DNA of 64,000 bases. Source: Colwellia sp. PAMC 20917 (lineage in GTDB: Bacteria > Pseudomonadota > Gammaproteobacteria > Enterobacterales > Alteromonadaceae). The notes under the pieces are model-generated. The model was given only the letters and a program-made list of their open reading frames with translations. It was not told the DNA's origin and did not search any database. How positions within the stretch are numbered: the stretch's first letter is position 1; each line of letters starts with the position of its first letter. The translations under genes and the position numbers were made by a program. Below are positions 47,833 to 56,960 of the stretch, piece after piece. Location: NCBI RefSeq assembly GCF_001767295.1, contig NZ_CP014944.1:62001-126000 (forward strand), written 5' to 3'.

Positions 47833-49530
47833 ATGGTTGCATTTGATTCAAAAACGTATAGCAAGCGCCTGTTACACCTGATCAGTTGGAGCCATTGGTT
47901 CACTTTTTTTAATATAATTGCCGCCATTGGATTATCATCCTTTTATATTTTTAGTGAAGGAGGTCCCGAGACATTCCTTGGACAATTTTATTTAATCACC
48001 ACGTGGTTTAGTCATATGGGTTTTTTAACCTTTATGACTTTTGTTTTAATATTATTCCCGATCACCTTAATATTTCCACATACCCGTTTTATTCGAGCGA
48101 CAGCCTCGGTAGTCTTTACCCTGCAATTGTTAATATTACTGCTTGATGCTTATATATATAACAGTTTGGGTTACCATCTAAATGCTTCTTCAAGCGCACA
48201 AATTGTTGATCTAATTAGCACGCAAATACAACATAACAGCCGTATTTTTTGGTTTGTTAGTATCGTATTAACCTTGTTTATTTTAGCGTTCGAATTAATT
48301 ATAAGTAATTATGCGTGGAAACATTTAAGAGACTTACAGAAAGTCGTCTTCGCAAAGTTTGTTGTTATCGGTTTAGTTTGTTCTTTTTTCTTTAGCCACT
48401 TATTACATATTTGGGCTGATGCGAACTTAGAATATGATATTTTAAGACAAGACACAGTATTACCTTTGTCATACCCATCGACGGCTAAAACATTACTCAC
48501 AAAATACGGTATGTTTGACCGTGAAGCATATATAGAAAGAACAACAAGCCCACTAGCCTTTACCAATGCTATTCCTCAATACCCACTGCTCAATGAAGCC
48601 TGTGTTTCACAAACACCAATACAAAAATCAGTATTTATGGTGGTTAACGATGTCAGCTTAACAGATAAACAGATCAAGCAATTTAAGCAGAGAAACACCC
48701 AAAACCAGTTAACGCTCGAACATCATATAGATAACGCCTTACACAAAAACGCGTGGTTTAACTTGTTTTACAGCTTGCCAAGTATTTACCAAGAAGGCTT
48801 GGAAGAACAAAAGGCGATCCCTTTACTCTTTCAATTATTAGACAGAAATAAGTTGGCAAGTTCATACACAATGATCCATGGCTATGACAAGATAAATAAA
48901 GAGCTAGTACTAGAATCACAAGGTTTTGAACCTTTATTTAATCAGCAAACGATACTTGATAATATTTCATCACTAGTCTTTGCTGATAAGCTTAATAGCT
49001 TACCTGTAGGTTTACATTTATTTTATTTTGCTGACAGTAATACTTACCAATTTGAATTGTTTATGGATGCATTGCTGCTAGCACAAAAAACAAAACAAAC
49101 TAAAGATATTATTTGGATCACTTCCGTTGGTAACAAGACCAAGGCGACCAGTTTATCTATTAAACCTTCGTTACTCATTTTGCCTGAAAGTGAAAGTAAG
49201 ACAGTGAGCCATTTAACCAGTCACATGGATATTCAACCAACCTTAATACAGGAATGGTTAAACTGTGACATTAATGAAAAAACCTATAGTAATGGCAAAA
49301 ATGTTCTGCAGTTATCCAAAGACCGTATTATTGCCAATACCATGGACGATGGCATGATGGTATTTAGTAAAGACAAATCAGTGTTTATTGATCAAAATGG
49401 TAATTTCCAAAGCTACTCTCGACAATTAGCGGCCCCTATAATGGTAAACTCTGATTTTCCATTAATGATTGACGGGGTTAACTTTATTAAGCAGTTTAGT
49501 AAGCAGGCAGAGAAATTGAACAATAAATAA
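47833..49530 (+). CDS. yejM: Inner-membrane sulfatase-fold protein YejM/PbgA (LapC)
   Basis: A 565-residue protein with five membrane segments in the first 200 residues (DUF3413), then a periplasmic sulfatase-like domain. In E. coli it senses lipopolysaccharide and restrains LapB-FtsH turnover of LpxC. SWSHWFTFFNIIAAIG near the N-terminus is typical. The periplasmic domain is shorter and more divergent than in enterics, with no clear sulfatase nucleophile motif, consistent with a non-catalytic role. Confidence 0.88.
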   Translation: MVAFDSKTYSKRLLHLISWSHWFTFFNIIAAIGLSSFYIFSEGGPETFLGQFYLITTWFSHMGFLTFMTFVLILFPITLIFPHTRFIRATASVVFTLQLLILLLDAYIYNSLGYHLNASSSAQIVDLISTQIQHNSRIFWFVSIVLTLFILAFELIISNYAWKHLRDLQKVVFAKFVVIGLVCSFFFSHLLHIWADANLEYDILRQDTVLPLSYPSTAKTLLTKYGMFDREAYIERTTSPLAFTNAIPQYPLLNEACVSQTPIQKSVFMVVNDVSLTDKQIKQFKQRNTQNQLTLEHHIDNALHKNAWFNLFYSLPSIYQEGLEEQKAIPLLFQLLDRNKLASSYTMIHGYDKINKELVLESQGFEPLFNQQTILDNISSLVFADKLNSLPVGLHLFYFADSNTYQFELFMDALLLAQKTKQTKDIIWITSVGNKTKATSLSIKPSLLILPESESKTVSHLTSHMDIQPTLIQEWLNCDINEKTYSNGKNVLQLSKDRIIANTMDDGMMVFSKDKSVFIDQNGNFQSYSRQLAAPIMVNSDFPLMIDGVNFIKQFSKQAEKLNNK

Positions 49531-49628
49531 ACTAACAGATTGATTTTCTATATTTTATATTGCAATCAGTATTTAAACCATTATTATACAGGCAGTAAAC
49601 AGATTAACCCTCTTAATGTTTACTTATT

Positions 49629-49705
49629 CGGGGTATAGCGCAGCTTGGTAGCGCGTGCGTCTGGGGGACGTGAGGTCGCAAGTTCGAATCTTGCTACTCC
49701 GACCA
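49629..49705 (+). tRNA. tRNA-Pro (anticodon GGG)
   Basis: A 77-base cloverleaf. The acceptor stem cggggta pairs with tactccg (one G-T), the D arm is agcgcagcttggtagcgc, the anticodon loop is ctggggg with GGG at positions 34-36, the T arm is gcaagttcgaatcttgc, and CCA is encoded. Anticodon-stem pairs include two G-T. It marks the left border of the accessory region. Confidence 0.95.
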
Positions 49706-49717
49706 CATTTATAAATC

Positions 49718-49742
49718 AAGACGTCCTAGGGCGTCTTTTTTT
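49718..49742 (+). terminator. Terminator after tRNA-Pro
   Basis: The stem aagacgtc / ggcgtctt (one G-T pair) is followed by seven T. Confidence 0.8.
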
Positions 49743-50179
49743 ATGCCTAAAGATCAATCCAAACCACTAAACAGCAAAATTATAACGCTTTTTACAAACC
49801 TATATTGTGTTATAAAATCCCACCGCTAATGTAACACTCCAAGTAACACTATCTATTACTCATGATTATGATGTTTTTAGAAAGATCTGATTGTTTAATT
49901 ATTATAATATTGATGTGTCATAGCAAAATAGCATAACCGTTAGGCAATACTTAAGTTAAGGCCGCAAAAGACAAAAATTATAATTTTGCTGATACTTTAG
50001 CCTTACAAATGACACCAAGAAAAGATAATGGATAAAAGAGATCACAGTATTACTTTAGCTACGCTCTCTTTTTACCGTGTTAGAAATATACAAACCTCTC
50101 AACATCGTGAACGCCTGTTCCCCACATAGGTGAGTTTATGAAAAAACAGAACCGTCCTTTGCTATTTTAATCTTTTCTC
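49743..50179. other. Non-coding stretch between tRNA-Pro and the cassette region
   Basis: I see no gene, no attC-like site and no direct repeat of the tRNA 3' end here. It is AT-rich with several stop codons in every frame. It may hold decayed cassette or island border sequence. Confidence 0.4.
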
Positions 50180-50467
50180 TTACATATGTTTCAAATCCTG
50201 AAAGTTCTCAATTTTAATGTTTCTTAATTCTTCTACAAAGTGCGCTGCTTTGTATTTAACTGCTTCTCGCTGATAATGTTTCGCGCAGTTTTCTGGAATA
50301 AGAAAAAATTCTTCATCCTCATCCCAATCAAAGGCTTCTACGTAGTCGATTTCTATACTTCCTGACCCATCTTCTGAGTAACAAGCAAAGGCGACATCAT
50401 ACTATTTTGTTTCAGGCTGCTTGCTAAAGACAGACTCTAAATCGTCGATGATATGCTGAACTTTCAT
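50180..50467 (-). pseudogene. Cassette ORF of unknown function with in-frame amber codon
   Basis: The frame from the ATG at 50467 encodes 21 residues (KVQHIIDDLESVF...), then a TAG, then 73 more residues of good acidic protein sequence (IDYVEAFDWDEDEEFF...) to a TAA. Both parts are in one frame, so one base change explains the break. I do not recognise the family. When the IS110-type element is removed, the ATG lies directly behind an attC-like site, which marks this as a cassette gene. Readthrough of the amber is possible but unproven. Confidence 0.6.
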
Positions 50468-50500
50468 TTAGCTTCCTAGACACAATGACTCCCCACAAGG

Positions 50501-50579
50501 TGCTAGCCTCTAAATGTGGGTTAGTTTTACAAACCAGAGCCATAATATATGTGTCAACATTATCAAACAGAGGCTAGCA
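50501..50579 (+). promoter_or_regulatory. Inverted repeat that covers the transposase ribosome site
   Basis: tgctagcctct (50501-50511) is perfectly complementary to agaggctagca (50569-50579), which contains the AGAGG ribosome site and the A of the start codon. A transcript entering from outside would fold and hide the start. Confidence 0.65.
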
Positions 50580-51733
50580 TGATAAAACATAACATACTTT
50601 TCATTGGCTTAGATACCCATAAAACATTTACTGAAGTCGCTTATATTGAAGACCAACGTGGCGCTAAATCAACTCATCTAGGTAAAATACTCAGTAATAA
50701 AGCCGCCTTTAAAAAACTCGCACGACAATTACAATCAAAATATCCAGATGCCACACTTCATTTTGTTTACGAAGCAGGTCCTTGTGGCTATTGGATTTAC
50801 CGCTTTCTCACCAGCCTTAATCATTGTTGCTATGTCATCGCACCTTCTCTTATCCCTAAAAAACCAGGAGATAAAATCAAAACCGATAAACGTGATGCGC
50901 TCAAACTTGCAAAGCTGCTCAAGTCTGAAGACTTAACATCTATCTATGTCCCTGAGCCCGAAGATGAAGCCGTACGGGACTTATCTCGGGCACGAGAAAC
51001 AGGCATGAAAGACTTAAAGGATGCTAAATATCAACTTAAAGCATTGTTATTACGTAACAACATTAACAGCAAAATAAAAGATAACTGGTCATTACAACAT
51101 TTGCGTTGGCTCGCTGAATTAGTATTACCTCATCCTTGTCAGCAAATTGTTTTGCAAGAAGCGGTTTTAACCATTAATGAACGACTAAAACGCTTAAAAA
51201 GGCTGGATAATGAATTAACACATCAAGTGAAAAACTGGCGGTTTTATCCTGTAGTTAAAGCGATACAGGCGCTCCGTGGTGTGAGGTTATTAGTCGCCAC
51301 AGGAGTGATTGCCGAACTAGGTGACTTATCACGGTTCGACCATCCCAGAAAATTAATGAGTTACCTTGGTCTTGTACCAAGTGAACATTCAAGTGGCGAT
51401 AAACGCCATTTAGGTGCTATTACCAAATGCGGTAACAGCCGTGCAAGACGACTACTGGTCGAAGGTGCACATTCGTATAAACACAACGCCAATATTTCAA
51501 AAGAAATGCAATTAAGACAAGAAGGCTTAAGCAAAGAAATTATTGATATGGCTTGGCAAGCTCAACTGAGGTTGTGCCGCCGCTATCAACGACTCATGCA
51601 TAAAGGCAAACATCGTAATGTGGTCGTTACGGCCATCGCCAGAGAAATGATCGCTTATATTTGGGCTATTTCTCGCGAGGTAGTGCTACCAAAAATTGAT
51701 GTGAAGCTAAGAATATCGACAGTACCTGCATGA
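50579..51733 (+). CDS. IS110-family DEDD transposase
   Basis: A 384-residue RNA-guided recombinase. The N-terminal RuvC-like DEDD domain shows IGLDTHK (D), VYEAGPCG (E) and KTDKRDALKLAKLL (D-x-x-D). The C-terminal Tnp20 domain holds RGVRLLVATGVIAELGDLSRF and SGDKRHLGAITKCGNSRARRLL with the likely catalytic serine. The ATG at 50579 has AGAGG at the right distance; an ATG 30 bases upstream lacks a site. Intact and probably functional. Confidence 0.93.
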   Translation: MIKHNILFIGLDTHKTFTEVAYIEDQRGAKSTHLGKILSNKAAFKKLARQLQSKYPDATLHFVYEAGPCGYWIYRFLTSLNHCCYVIAPSLIPKKPGDKIKTDKRDALKLAKLLKSEDLTSIYVPEPEDEAVRDLSRARETGMKDLKDAKYQLKALLLRNNINSKIKDNWSLQHLRWLAELVLPHPCQQIVLQEAVLTINERLKRLKRLDNELTHQVKNWRFYPVVKAIQALRGVRLLVATGVIAELGDLSRFDHPRKLMSYLGLVPSEHSSGDKRHLGAITKCGNSRARRLLVEGAHSYKHNANISKEMQLRQEGLSKEIIDMAWQAQLRLCRRYQRLMHKGKHRNVVVTAIAREMIAYIWAISREVVLPKIDVKLRISTVPA

Positions 51734-52041
51734 ATAAAAGTTTTGAGTTAGCGCATGGGATCAAGCATCGGGTGTGGCACAATCACCGACGGCGTTAGGA
51801 CGGCAATAGCCTAACGGCTATTGAACCGCGAACATAGACTGAAGACAGGTGCCACGACGAAATGAGTAAGGTAGGCGCTGCTAGCAAACAAGTTAGTAAT
51901 TCACGAATATCAGCATGATAACCGACGAAATTACTTGCTTCATTCTATGCGTTAACTCACTTAATACTAAAAGTGAATACAATGATTCTGAAATTAATGA
52001 ACAAGGATCAGTGTATTTAACTTGACGTGGGGAGTCATACC
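51734..52041 (+). ncRNA. Candidate bridge/seek RNA region of the IS1111-group element
   Basis: About 300 non-coding bases lie between the transposase stop and the right end. In the IS1111 group the target-choosing RNA is encoded here. The segment 51791-51800 (ggcgttagga) equals ten bases of the attC insertion target as rebuilt from the flanks, and 51810-51816 (cctaacg) equals the other strand; the two form a 7-bp hairpin. RNA ends cannot be set from sequence. Confidence 0.6.
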
Positions 52042-52135
52042 AACGCCCAATTAACGGGCTAAAAATAGTTGGTTAAAATTAGCAACGAAGGAGCAAAAGC
52101 CAACTACTTTTCTCCTTGTTTAACAGCATGTTATA
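52042..52135 (-). other. attC-like recombination site 1 (interrupted by the IS)
   Basis: Read on the minus strand, the site begins at the stop codon of the lipoprotein gene with tataaca, has two imperfectly paired arms around ggagcaaaagc/aaggaga and taaccaact/agttggct, and ends ttaattgggcgtt, continuing across the IS as aggaagc. This gives an R box GTTAGGA next to the cut. Length and layout match attC sites of marine chromosomal integrons. Confidence 0.7.
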
Positions 52136-52136
52136 G

Positions 52137-52583
52137 CTAAACTTCACGTTTAGGGCAATTTTCCAAGTACTTAGTCTCAGTTGGGTTTCTACTAGTCGAA
52201 AAATCCATACGGACAGAAGTTAAAACTGGCGTATTATTTTTATTTTTCTCTGTTGCTTGCCACTTCCATTTAACTAGCGCGGCGGCGGCATTATTATCAA
52301 ATACACCTTTAGGATATGATGAGCGAATCTTATACCCTTTAGCTTTTCCATTTTGATCAATGCCAACGATCAAATCAACACAACCTGATATATTATTTCT
52401 TGCAGCTGAAACTGGGTATCTTGGATCAATTCTTTTTGCAACACTCCAATATTCTTCAACGAGTTTAACTTGTTCTTTACCTGATAAGTCAAGGTAATCA
52501 ATTTTAGTTTCTTCAACTTTAGTTGTTGAAGTACAGGAAACCACAAAAAGTGCAAGTGGCAGTAATAGATATGATTTATTCAA
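52137..52583 (-). CDS. Lipoprotein with TonB C-terminal-like domain (cassette gene)
   Basis: A 148-residue predicted lipoprotein. LPLALFVVSCTSTTK is a lipobox with cysteine at 17. Residues 50-130 (DPRYPVSAARNNISGCVDLIVGIDQNGKAKGYKI...AAALVKWKW) match the TonB C-terminal domain, which normally contacts outer-membrane receptors; the rest of TonB (membrane helix, Pro-rich region) is absent. Its stop codon abuts attC-like site 1 and attC-like site 2 lies just upstream of its start, so it is one complete integron-type cassette. Confidence 0.78.
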   Translation of the reverse strand: MNKSYLLLPLALFVVSCTSTTKVEETKIDYLDLSGKEQVKLVEEYWSVAKRIDPRYPVSAARNNISGCVDLIVGIDQNGKAKGYKIRSSYPKGVFDNNAAAALVKWKWQATEKNKNNTPVLTSVRMDFSTSRNPTETKYLENCPKREV

Positions 52584-52599
52584 AGCTTTCTCCTTTAGC

Positions 52600-52694
52600 T
52601 CTAACGCCGCAATAAGCGGCTAAAAATGGTTGGCTATAATGTGAACGAAGTGAAACAGCCAGCTGTTTTTTGTCCATTTAATTGCCTTGTTATA
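52600..52694 (-). other. attC-like recombination site 2
   Basis: Read on the minus strand it starts tataacaaggcaatta, has paired inner arms (aacagctggctgt / tagccaacca), and ends ttattgcggcgttagag. The R box GTTAGAG agrees with GTTRRRY at six of seven positions. Same orientation and size as site 1. Confidence 0.72.
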
Positions 52695-52743
52695 TATTTT
52701 ATACCATAATCTAATATATATTGGTACAAACAAGGGTTTCATT

Positions 52744-52983
52744 ATGGCTAAAAATACTAGCGTCACACTAGGCGATCACTTTGATCAGTTTATTAACCAA
52801 CAACTTAACACAGGTCGTTACGGTTCAGCGAGTGAAATTGTTCGAGCTGGGTTAAGAGCTTTAGAAGATCAAGAGACTAAACTATTAAATTTACGCAATA
52901 TGCTTATTCAAGGTGAACAAAGCGGTATAGCTGATTACAGTTATGATTCTTTATTAACAGAATTAGATAACGAAAATCACTAA
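52744..52983 (+). CDS. parD: ParD-like antitoxin
   Basis: A 79-residue ribbon-helix-helix antitoxin. KNTSVTLGDHFDQFINQQLNTGRYGSASEIVRAGLRALED is the ParD/CopG DNA-binding and dimerisation part; the acidic C-terminus wraps the toxin. ATG at 52744 follows an AAGGG site. The stop codon shares one base with the ATG of the toxin gene, the standard coupling. It is opposite in direction to the neighbouring cassette genes, so it needs its own promoter; toxin-antitoxin cassettes are often placed this way. Confidence 0.9.
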   Translation: MAKNTSVTLGDHFDQFINQQLNTGRYGSASEIVRAGLRALEDQETKLLNLRNMLIQGEQSGIADYSYDSLLTELDNENH

Positions 52984-53276
52984 TGAAAAAATTAGTATTA
53001 TCCGCTAAAGCGAAATCAGATTTAATTAAAATAGCTCTATACACTCAACTTACATGGGGAACCACGCAACGAAATGATTATTTAAAAATATTAGATAGCA
53101 CATTTCGATTATTAGCTGAGGAGCCAGAGTTAGGAATAAACTGTGATTACATCAGAGAGGGTTACAGTAAATATCCTCAAGCTAGCCACGTAATTTATTA
53201 CAAAGAACATAAAGTAAATCAAATATTAATTGTACGTGTGCTGCATAAAAGTATGGATGTTAACTCTGCTATCTAG
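52983..53276 (+). CDS. parE: ParE/RelE-family toxin
   Basis: A 97-residue toxin of the RelE/ParE fold. LVLSAKAKSDLIKIALYTQLTWGTTQRNDYL and the C-terminal HVIYYKEHKVNQILIVRVLHKSMD are typical of ParE, which blocks DNA gyrase. Coupled with the ParD-like gene by a one-base overlap. The pair probably stabilises the cassette array. A truncated IS begins eight bases after the stop. Confidence 0.9.
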   Translation: MKKLVLSAKAKSDLIKIALYTQLTWGTTQRNDYLKILDSTFRLLAEEPELGINCDYIREGYSKYPQASHVIYYKEHKVNQILIVRVLHKSMDVNSAI

Positions 53277-53284
53277 AAAAATAT

Positions 53285-53487
53285 AGACACAATGACCCCC
53301 CACAAGGTGCTAGCCTCTAAATGTGGGTTAGTTTTACAAACCAGAGCCATAATATATGTGTCAACATTATCAAACAGAGGCTAGCATGATAAAACATAAC
53401 ATACTTTTCATTGGCTTAGATACCCATAAAACATTTACTGAAGTCGCTTATATTGAAGACCAACGTGGCGCTAAATCAACTCATCTA
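53285..53487 (+). mobile_element. Truncated second copy of the IS1111-group element
   Basis: These 203 bases equal 50478-50680 of the complete copy except one C for T in the left inverted repeat. The copy holds the left end, the hairpin and the first 36 codons from the transposase ATG, then stops abruptly inside the gene and continues into the cyclotransferase-like gene. The remaining 1360 bases and the right end are missing. Confidence 0.92.
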
Positions 53488-54006
53488 AGCACAGTCTTTT
53501 TGAATAGTGTGTGGACGATACATTGCCCGTTCTTTTGTTTCTCTCTCTTTATTTGGATCCTCTATACAGACAACAGATTCGATAATAGCGAGGTAATCCA
53601 ACGGTAGCTTTGTTTCTTTTGCCCCAACAATGACGTGATTTAGGTACCAAGTATATGGTTTTAATGAAGGGTCTATTTTAATTGCGCAATAAATTAGTGC
53701 TTCGAACGTTTTTCCCTGTTCATTTATTACGGATACTGTTTTTTCATTATACCCAGACCCTAAACTTTCCGCTCTATCTAAAATGGGTTTCTCATTTTCA
53801 TCTATCTCAAAAAGAGCGCCTACGACCACGTCATCACTATTATTCGTATAAAAAGAGTCGCATTTACCTGATCCATCTTTGCCACTCATATTAAAACGCA
53901 ACTGATGATTTTTAAGACTTACTGTGTCAATTTTTTGGGCACTTGGCACCCTTTGTTGAAGTCTTATAAGGGACATGTTTGAACCATATGCAAAATACTT
54001 CATCAA
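53485..54006 (-). CDS. Gamma-glutamylcyclotransferase-like (AIG2/GGCT) protein
   Basis: A 173-residue GGCT-fold protein. KYFAYGSNMSLIRLQQR is the conserved YGSN substrate loop, VVGALFEIDENEKPILDRAE holds the catalytic glutamate. Proteins of this family are common in chromosomal integron cassettes. The stop codon TAG lies in the truncated IS: the last native codon is at 53488, so the original C-terminus and the gene's own attC site were probably deleted when the IS was cut. The missing end is likely short, because the length is near normal. Confidence 0.82.
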   Translation of the reverse strand: MMKYFAYGSNMSLIRLQQRVPSAQKIDTVSLKNHQLRFNMSGKDGSGKCDSFYTNNSDDVVVGALFEIDENEKPILDRAESLGSGYNEKTVSVINEQGKTFEALIYCAIKIDPSLKPYTWYLNHVIVGAKETKLPLDYLAIIESVVCIEDPNKERETKERAMYRPHTIQKDCA

Positions 54007-55216: not shown

Positions 55217-55630
55217 CTATCTTGCTGCTCGATTGTATTGCTTAAGAACCTCTATCGGCGCTCCGCCGACAGAGCATGCATAATAACCAGAGCTCCAAAG
55301 TGCATTCTACCTCCAAGCTACCTGATTTAACTGCGGAAACCACAACTTCATCTCTCGACCTGTAATACTTTTTAAAACATTAACTAATCGTGAAATTGAA
55401 ATAGAAGGCAGGTAAGAGATAATCATGTGAACATGATCTGACTCCCCATTAAACTCAACCAATTCTGACTTTAGTTTTAAACATTCTCTTTTTATTATAA
55501 AGTTCATTTTATATAACATCTCGCTCGTAAACTTCCGCTCACGATATTTAGTAACAAATATAATGTGAGCTTGAATTAAATACGAAGAATGAGCGCTCTT
55601 TTTATATTTCATACAGACACTTATTGACAC
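55217..55630 (-). pseudogene. tnpA: TnpA (Y1 HUH transposase) with in-frame amber codon
   Basis: The frame encodes 107 residues ending VAWR, then TAG (55307-55309), then 29 further residues in the same frame (NALWSSGYYACSVGGAPIEV...) to a second TAG. ESDHVHMII supplies the HUH metal site before the stop; the catalytic tyrosine in VLKQYNR is after it. Total length would match a normal TnpA of about 137 residues. Without readthrough the enzyme lacks its nucleophile and the element cannot move by itself. Confidence 0.82.
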
Positions 55631-55658
55631 TGGTTATTTATACAGTATAGTCGTCATT

Positions 55659-56960
55659 ATGAGTTTAATCAGCGTTTCGAAATTTAATATCGGTCAGACA
55701 ACACCTTTGCAAACAGAGTTGCGAAGAGAGTCAGCTCGCCTTTGGAACGATATGGTTAAACTGCACAAATTCATCCGAAAACGCCGATGGAAGTGGCCTT
55801 TTAGAGGTGATTTTGAAAAGCACTTTAAAAGTAAGTACCGACTTCATAGCCAGACAAACCAGGCGCTTATTAAAAAGTTCTTTGCTAACATCGAAACAAC
55901 CTCAGAGAATCGAAAAGCTGGCGATAAAAAAGCTCGTTATCCGTACCGTGACAGGAAGCACTTCCAGGTAGTAATGTACAAGGCTTCGGCGATAAAAAGA
56001 AAAGGTAACCGCGTCATTCTTTCAAACGGACTTGGAGTTAAAAAACTCATCGTTCGCATTCCAAAAGATATACCCATTGGTAAAATCACAGGGGCGGAGC
56101 TTAGTTTTCGGGAGCTTAGGCTCACGATAAAGCAAGATATCAAAACCATTAAGTCCGCTGGCAGCAACGTAGTTGCTGCTGACTTAGGTGTAATTCATCT
56201 TGCAGCGATGACCGATGGCGAAACGTCGGAGATCATAGTTGGTCGCGGTCTTCGCTCGTTAATTCAGTATAGAAACAAGAAGCTCGCTGAATTCTCAAGA
56301 CTGCTTTCAAAATGCAAGAAAGGGTCTAGACGGAGCCGAAAATTACGAGTAGCAAAAGCTAAAATGCTGTTCAGAAATGACAATCAGCAGCGCAATTTTC
56401 TCCATCATGCATCCAAGCAAATGATTGATTATTGCGTGAAACAACAAGCAGGTATGCTTGTTGTGGGCGATTGCATCAATATGAGTAAGAATGCTCGGAA
56501 AAAGAAGAAAGGCTCAAGACGTTCAAATCAAATGAACAGCAACAATCCCCTTGGGCAGCTACTCACCTATCTTAAATACAAAGGTAAATTCCAAGGTGTA
56601 GAGCTTGATAAAATAGGAGAGCAGTACACCACTCAGACTTGCCCGAAATGCGGTCATAGACACAAACCTTCGGGGCGCAATTACCAGTGTAAAAATCCAG
56701 AATGTGATTTCATTGGAGTGCGGGATTTGGTCGGTTCGGCCAACATTAAAAATAAATTCGAGAACGGTAGAATAGAAAAAGGATACCTTCTCCCGCCACT
56801 TGTGGCAAAGTATCGCAGACCTGTAAAAGTCCCTGTAATAAGGCTGAACTGCGTAGTCCATCTGACAGATGGCATGTTGCTTGATAACACCCTTGATGCG
56901 GCTCAGGCACTTTCGAGTGCAGGTGGTAAAACACCGTCTGAGCTATTTCACGTGGCCTGA
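55659..56960 (+). CDS. tnpB: TnpB RNA-guided nuclease
   Basis: A 433-residue TnpB, ancestor-type of Cas12. The N-terminal wedge/REC-like part is basic. RuvC-I is VVAADLGVIHLA (Asp about 174), RuvC-III is GVRDLVGSANI (Asp), and the zinc finger is CPKCGHRH...CKNPEC. In RuvC-II the usual glutamate is absent: the strand reads MLVVGDCINMS. A glutamate in KIGEQYTTQTCPKCG could be the replacement. It is opposite in direction to tnpA. The guide RNA should come from the tnpB 3' end and right end (about 56850-56998). Confidence 0.88.
   Translation: MSLISVSKFNIGQTTPLQTELRRESARLWNDMVKLHKFIRKRRWKWPFRGDFEKHFKSKYRLHSQTNQALIKKFFANIETTSENRKAGDKKARYPYRDRKHFQVVMYKASAIKRKGNRVILSNGLGVKKLIVRIPKDIPIGKITGAELSFRELRLTIKQDIKTIKSAGSNVVAADLGVIHLAAMTDGETSEIIVGRGLRSLIQYRNKKLAEFSRLLSKCKKGSRRSRKLRVAKAKMLFRNDNQQRNFLHHASKQMIDYCVKQQAGMLVVGDCINMSKNARKKKKGSRRSNQMNSNNPLGQLLTYLKYKGKFQGVELDKIGEQYTTQTCPKCGHRHKPSGRNYQCKNPECDFIGVRDLVGSANIKNKFENGRIEKGYLLPPLVAKYRRPVKVPVIRLNCVVHLTDGMLLDNTLDAAQALSSAGGKTPSELFHVA

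What the first reader, a model, noticed from the sequence alone, without database searches (positions are those of the whole stretch)
51734..52041. Candidate bridge/seek RNA of an IS1111-group element carries a ten-base copy of its attC target
The element sits exactly in an attC-like site. With it removed, the minus strand reads ggcgttagga across the insertion point. The non-coding region after the transposase contains this same ten-base string at 51791-51800, and the complement of its core (cctaacg) at 51810-51816. A guide RNA that pairs with both target strands, as in the IS110 bridge RNA model, would need both. It links attC targeting by this IS group to a readable guide in one locus.
Basis: partly seen in the sequence, partly recalled or inferred. 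Interest (0 to 1): 0.8.

Follow-up and report, generated by a model that had tools for sequence, protein, structure and literature searches.

The report
RNA-guided IS1111 element in attC
This is a jumping gene that very probably carries its own small guide RNA and uses it to land in integron cassette sites; the kind is already known, but its relatives show which bases of the RNA read which side of the target, and one of the two segments first proposed is wrong.

Summary
In detail: a 1,564-bp IS1111-group element (50478-52041) splits an attC-like site, and its non-coding region holds ggcgttagga (51791-51800; 22 of 5000 shuffles match as long) and cctaacg (51810-51816). GGCGTTA (51791-51797) is very probably the right-target guide: in 14 diverged relatives with other targets the homologous segment complements each element's own site (0 of 100,000 within-group permutations). 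The cctaacg segment is not the second guide: it straddles a hairpin loop and occurs in 3 of 27 related RNAs. The left-target guide is most likely ACATA (51832-51836; 16 of 100,000). ATATCA (51907-51912) may read the element's right end. The ten-base match overstates the target: ten copies share only TAACGCC. Two of ten are not in attC, so attC is not required; yet eight are, although TAACGCC occurs 851 times in the genome. Loss of insertions in genes may explain much of that bias (37 of 40 sampled sites lie in long open frames). Guide-directed attC targeting was shown for ISKpn4 and ISPst6 in 2024: a new member of a known kind. No RNA was measured.

The parts
50478..52041 (+). IS1111-group element, 1,564 bp (one A at the left end could belong to the target instead)
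   Evidence: same ends in ten full copies; 7/3-bp extensions as stated in PMC11187229; sequence
50579..51733 (+). transposase gene (an upstream ATG at 50549 is also in frame)
   Evidence: Pfam Transposase_20 and DEDD_Tnp_IS110
50485..50496 (+). left subterminal inverted repeat ATGACTCCCCAC
   Evidence: sequence
52027..52038 (+). right subterminal inverted repeat GTGGGGAGTCAT
   Evidence: sequence
51734..52041 (+). downstream non-coding region that should encode the guide RNA
   Evidence: 9 further copies in the genome at 99% identity; homologous regions in relatives
51774..51855 (+). hairpin closed by stem 51774-51780 / 51849-51855; a short guide RNA would lie at about 51770-51860 (boundaries inferred)
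   Evidence: five stem pairs with changes on both sides among 27 RNAs
51791..51797 (+). T guide GGCGTTA (in the finding extended to 51800), complementary to target top strand TA|ACGCC
   Evidence: co-change with the target among relatives
   Evidence: cctaacg in 3 of 27 distinct RNAs; a hairpin of 5 or more pairs folds in 24 of 27 segments
51832..51836 (+). B guide ACATA, same sense as the left flank, so complementary to the bottom strand
   Evidence: co-change with the left flank among relatives
51907..51912 (+). candidate donor guide ATATCA, resembling the right end ATACCA (52037-52042)
   Evidence: 81 against 77.0 +- 1.27, 383 of 100,000 within-group permutations; z 3.15 in the scan, not above its noise
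52042..52136 (+). rest of the interrupted attC-like site (its first bases are left of 50478)
   Evidence: GTT boxes and paired arms by eye

Best explanation
An IS1111-group element whose downstream non-coding region is transcribed into a guide RNA of the seekRNA/bridge-RNA kind. Mechanism: the RNA binds the DEDD transposase; GGCGTTA (51791-51797) pairs with the target top strand TA|ACGCC, ACATA (51832-51836) pairs with the bottom strand of the left flank, and a second part of the RNA (51907-51912) may read the element's right end; the excised circle is inserted at T|AACGCC, the sequence at one end of many attC sites of this genome. Shown here by comparison: the guide positions (co-change of RNA and target between relatives), the closing stem (compensatory changes) and the target core (ten copies). 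Inferred: transcription, binding, pairing and the reaction.
For: Fifteen elements, one per distinct guide: own-target T match 106 against 68.0 +- 4.6 when targets are swapped, B match 62 against 40.3 +- 4.0, each 0 of 100,000. Fourteen without the window element, swapped only within two sequence groups: T 99 against 68.4 +- 5.5 (0 of 100,000), B 59 against 40.2 +- 4.4 (16 of 100,000), B without its last two bases 33 against 18.3 +- 3.7 (26 of 100,000). A scan of 18,360 pairs of 5-nt RNA and DNA windows gives six with z above 4: three are B and three are T. Stem with both-sided changes in 5 pairs. TAACGCC at 10 of 10 own copies and at 35 of 42 insertions of the attC-type group after two mis-joined rows are dropped. 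T lies 5' of B, as reported for IS1111 seekRNAs.
Against: No RNA was measured. The B guide matches the window's own left flank at only 3 of 6 bases. The own target is the best or tied-best match in 12 of 15 elements for T and 9 of 15 for B, strictly best in 10 and 5. The elements are those with both ends found among relatives I fetched, and the anchors that locate T and B were set after seeing the sequences, so the tests are not blind. Glaciecola copies (guide GGTGTTA) stand beside right flanks that fit it poorly in the three loci that show one (ACATG, ACACT, ACTTC against ACACC); they were in no permutation test. Seven of 42 insertions have another core.
Confidence: 0.85

Rival explanations
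1. One reading: ggcgttagga and cctaacg (51810-51816) are the two guide segments.
For: Both strings are present and their order (top-strand match first) is the one reported for IS1111 elements.
Against: cctaacg is in 3 of 27 distinct RNAs and 2 of 23 distinct variable segments, and it straddles a hairpin loop; the scan puts the bottom-strand guide about 20 nt further 3'.
Confidence: 0.03
2. The match is chance or a captured piece of attC and the NCR does not guide insertion.
For: 22 of 5000 shuffles reach a ten-base match and 750 of 5000 a seven-base one.
Against: Relatives with other targets carry matching segments at the homologous place.
Confidence: 0.03
3. The guide is real but not enough: attC is also preferred in a second way, for example through its folded single strand. 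This can be true together with the best explanation.
For: TAACGCC occurs 851 times in the genome, yet 8 of 10 copies are in attC-like sites. If attC were 3%, 10%, 20% or 30% of available sites, 8 or more of 10 would have probability 3e-11, 4e-7, 8e-5 or 0.0016.
Against: 37 of 40 sampled other TAACGCC sites lie in open frames of at least 100 aa, so loss of harmful insertions explains much; counting only non-coding sites, attC would be about 30% (26 of about 90, my arithmetic). Two copies are outside attC, one of them in a LysR-like frame.
Confidence: 0.25

Closest known systems
ISKpn4, ISPst6 and ISPa25 (IS1111 elements that target attC) with their seekRNAs, PMC11187229
   Same: IS1111 group, guide in the downstream NCR, top-strand segment 5' of bottom-strand segment, insertion at one end of attC
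   Different: Different element from a Colwellia-like marine genome. Their sequences and figures were not available here, so guide letters and transposase identity were not compared. Theirs is shown by experiment, this one by comparison only.
IS621 and the IS110 bridge RNA, PMC11208160
   Same: DEDD and Transposase_20 transposase; RNA segments that read the target and perhaps the donor end
   Different: In IS110 elements the RNA lies upstream of the gene and the order of target segments is reversed; here there are long subterminal repeats, and a donor guide is only a candidate

Membership tests
IS1111 group of the IS110 family | DEDD transposase with Transposase_20 domain | tested here: met
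   PF01548 60.9 bits and PF02371 71.2 bits, both above cut-off
IS1111 group of the IS110 family | subterminal inverted repeats of 11-13 bp with 7-bp left and 3-bp right extensions | tested here: met
   12-bp repeats 50485-50496 and 52027-52038; extensions 7 and 3 bp if the ambiguous A is counted to the element
IS1111 group of the IS110 family | long NCR downstream of the gene | tested here: met
   308 bases after the stop codon
IS1111 group of the IS110 family | circular intermediate | not testable with these tools
   needs an experiment
IS1111-attC group | insertion at one end of attC in a fixed orientation | tested here: met
   8 of 10 own copies, 8 of 8 in G012 and 2 of 2 in G090 by eye, all with the same junction; 2 of 10 own copies are not in attC
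seekRNA systems | segments matching both target strands, top-strand segment first | tested here: met
seekRNA systems | RNA that co-purifies with the transposase and is needed for movement | not testable with these tools
   needs an experiment
bridge RNA systems | donor-reading guides | tested here: inconclusive
   right-end match 383 of 100,000; z 3.15 in the scan, not above its noise; no left-end guide among the six top pairs

The most novel reading that the evidence does not exclude
The RNA reads only about seven firm bases plus a soft left side, too little to single out attC among 851 matching sites, so this IS group has a second, unrecognised way of preferring attC, for example its folded single strand.
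Probability: 0.22. Interest if true: 0.65.

Novelty: new member of a known kind. Interest (0 to 1): 0.4.

Why it matters
It adds a marine lineage in which attC targeting by an IS1111 element can be read from sequence, shows by natural reprogramming over diverged relatives which RNA bases read the left and the right target, and raises a testable question: is a guide with about seven firm bases enough to explain the attC preference?

Tried and rejected
Rfam search of 49500-53500 gave only a tRNA. RNAalifold on the 27-RNA alignment left the variable hairpin unpaired, probably because it is misaligned; single folds were used instead. No left-end donor guide came out of the scan. A first anchor set for T picked a wrong downstream place in the diverged groups and was replaced; the B column shows a wrong pick for several attC-type rows, and the first pick was used from then on. 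A regex for the RNAs returned nothing and was corrected. GGCGTTA in 26 of the 27 RNAs is not evidence, because the regex that selected them required most of it.

Whether the B guide steers the choice among attC sites: base -3 is A at 7 of 8 occupied and 8 of 18 empty attC-like sites of this genome, p 0.08. Adding the G012 and G090 copies gives 17 of 18 against 8 of 18, p 0.003, but the empty sites come from this genome only. Among insertions of the attC-type group, base -3 of B and of the left flank go together weakly: p 0.045 with all 44 rows, 0.052 without the two mis-joined ones.

Rows dropped: of 26 plasmid regions fetched, 2 are of the attC type and 14 entered the permutation tests. Left out were seven without a usable left or right end or NCR (L152, L154, L161, L163, L164, L168, L171), L174 (same flanks as L167), and L175 and L176 (same guides as L160 and L159, other insertion sites; their right flanks differ from the guide at the first base). 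In one search the rows L025 and L028 join ends of different copies.

Full report
What is there. The window lies in a single-contig genome of 4,683,314 bases; the nearest named transposase relatives are from Colwellia (96% identity, which may leave out records very near the window's own genome). The element at 50478-52041 has ten full copies in this genome including the window's and a truncated one at about 53284-53487. Its ends are the same in the ten: left ...A|GACACAATGACYCCCC (one copy has one base fewer), right GTGGGGAGTCATACC|AACGCC.

The target. Joined flanks of the ten copies all contain TAACGCC. Eight of ten are attC-like by eye; L014 (in a LysR-like open frame) and L009 (no listed frame of 60 aa or more reaches the insertion point from outside the element) are not. 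Eight of 8 fetched full copies in G012 and 2 of 2 in G090 are at attC-like sites by eye. An integron integrase (415.8 bits, cut-off 265) lies about 3.3 kb from one copy.

The guides. Transposases about 46-50% identical on plasmids of Burkholderiales and alphaproteobacteria have recognisably homologous NCRs but other insertion sites. The segment homologous to 51791-51797 complements the element's own right flank plus the last two left-flank bases, for example TAGTCCG, AAGCGTGG, TACCCTGG, TAACAGGG, TAGTATCT; the segment homologous to 51832-51836 equals the own left flank, for example CACTA, CCATA, TGGTA, GCCACTTA. These are the clearest cases; the weaker ones (T 5 or 6 of 9, B 2 or 3 of 6) are. 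Permutations over all 15 elements, within groups for 14, and a scan of 18,360 window pairs agree. The tests are not blind: anchors were set after seeing the sequences, and the elements are those with both ends among the relatives I fetched.

The second segment of the finding. cctaacg straddles the loop of a hairpin that mostly keeps its pairing but not its sequence; 3 of 27 distinct attC-type RNAs contain it, two of them from one other genus. In this genome base -3 is A at 7 of 8 occupied attC sites: the B guide ACATA predicts A, the T string extended to GGCGTTAGG predicts C. This suggests that the T guide ends at GGCGTTA, but against 8 of 18 empty sites it is only suggestive (p 0.08). The window's own copy is the exception: its left flank reads TTCCTA, which fits the longer T string and fits B at only 3 of 6 bases.

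Structure. In 27 RNAs the closing stem 51774-51780 / 51849-51855 has five pairs with changes on both sides.

How specific can it be. TAACGCC occurs 851 times. Eighteen empty attC-like sites with TAACGCC were fetched, a lower bound. Of 40 other TAACGCC sites, taken by hand from the 100 listed (plus strand, first 1.09 Mb), 37 lie in a stop-free stretch of at least 100 codons in one of six frames and 3 do not. Loss of insertions in genes could therefore account for much of the attC bias; whether it accounts for all is open.

Donor side. ATATCA at 51907-51912 resembles the right end ATACCA. In the 14 diverged elements the corresponding segment matches the own right end at 6 of 6 bases in 12, 5 in one and 4 in one. 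Durrant et al. [quoted passage not shown] It does not stand above the noise of the scan.

Results against. Glaciecola copies with guide GGTGTTA have right flanks that fit it poorly in the three loci that show one. Seven of 42 insertions of the attC-type group have another core. No expression was measured.

What is known. Siddiquee et al. 2024 (PMC11187229; outline, abstract, sections 9 and 13 and passages seen) purified RNAs with the ISKpn4 and ISPst6 transposases, found segments for both strands of the attC target and reprogrammed ISEc11. Of Durrant et al. 2024 (PMC11208160) passages and section 12 were seen. Text searches for IS1111 with attC, IS1111 or seek RNA since 2023, seekRNA, bridge RNA with IS1111 and donor, ISKpn4 with attC, target- and donor-binding loops and IS1111-attC showed no title or abstract start about this element; apart from the two papers named, only listings were seen, 20 of 32 papers and 20 of 178. 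Tetu and Holmes 2008 and Post and Hall 2009 are not held.

Verdict. A well-supported guide, one of two proposed segments wrong, mechanism already published: a new member of a known kind, with a correction and one open question about specificity.

Noticed in passing
window 53284-53487: Truncated second copy of the same element (about 200 bases of its left end), 1.2 kb downstream, after a cassette-like pair of frames (52687-53276) that looks like a ParD/ParE-type pair by eye.
   Followed up: partly
L014 (G000:C1:3973800-3976900), about 750: One copy interrupts a LysR-like frame at a GGCGTTAGA stretch; a non-attC site that fits the guide.
   Followed up: partly
L080 (G039:C4:59600-62100), NCR: A related element whose T guide region is interrupted by an insert of roughly a hundred bases right after GGCGTT.
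   Followed up: no
L090-L096 (Glaciecola sp. XM2): Several contigs end at or near copies with guide GGTGTTA; the right flanks that are visible fit the guide poorly, perhaps a looser or changed target.
   Followed up: no
window 55307-56960: Divergent pair of frames that look like IS200/IS605-type TnpA and TnpB (by eye, not searched).
   Followed up: no
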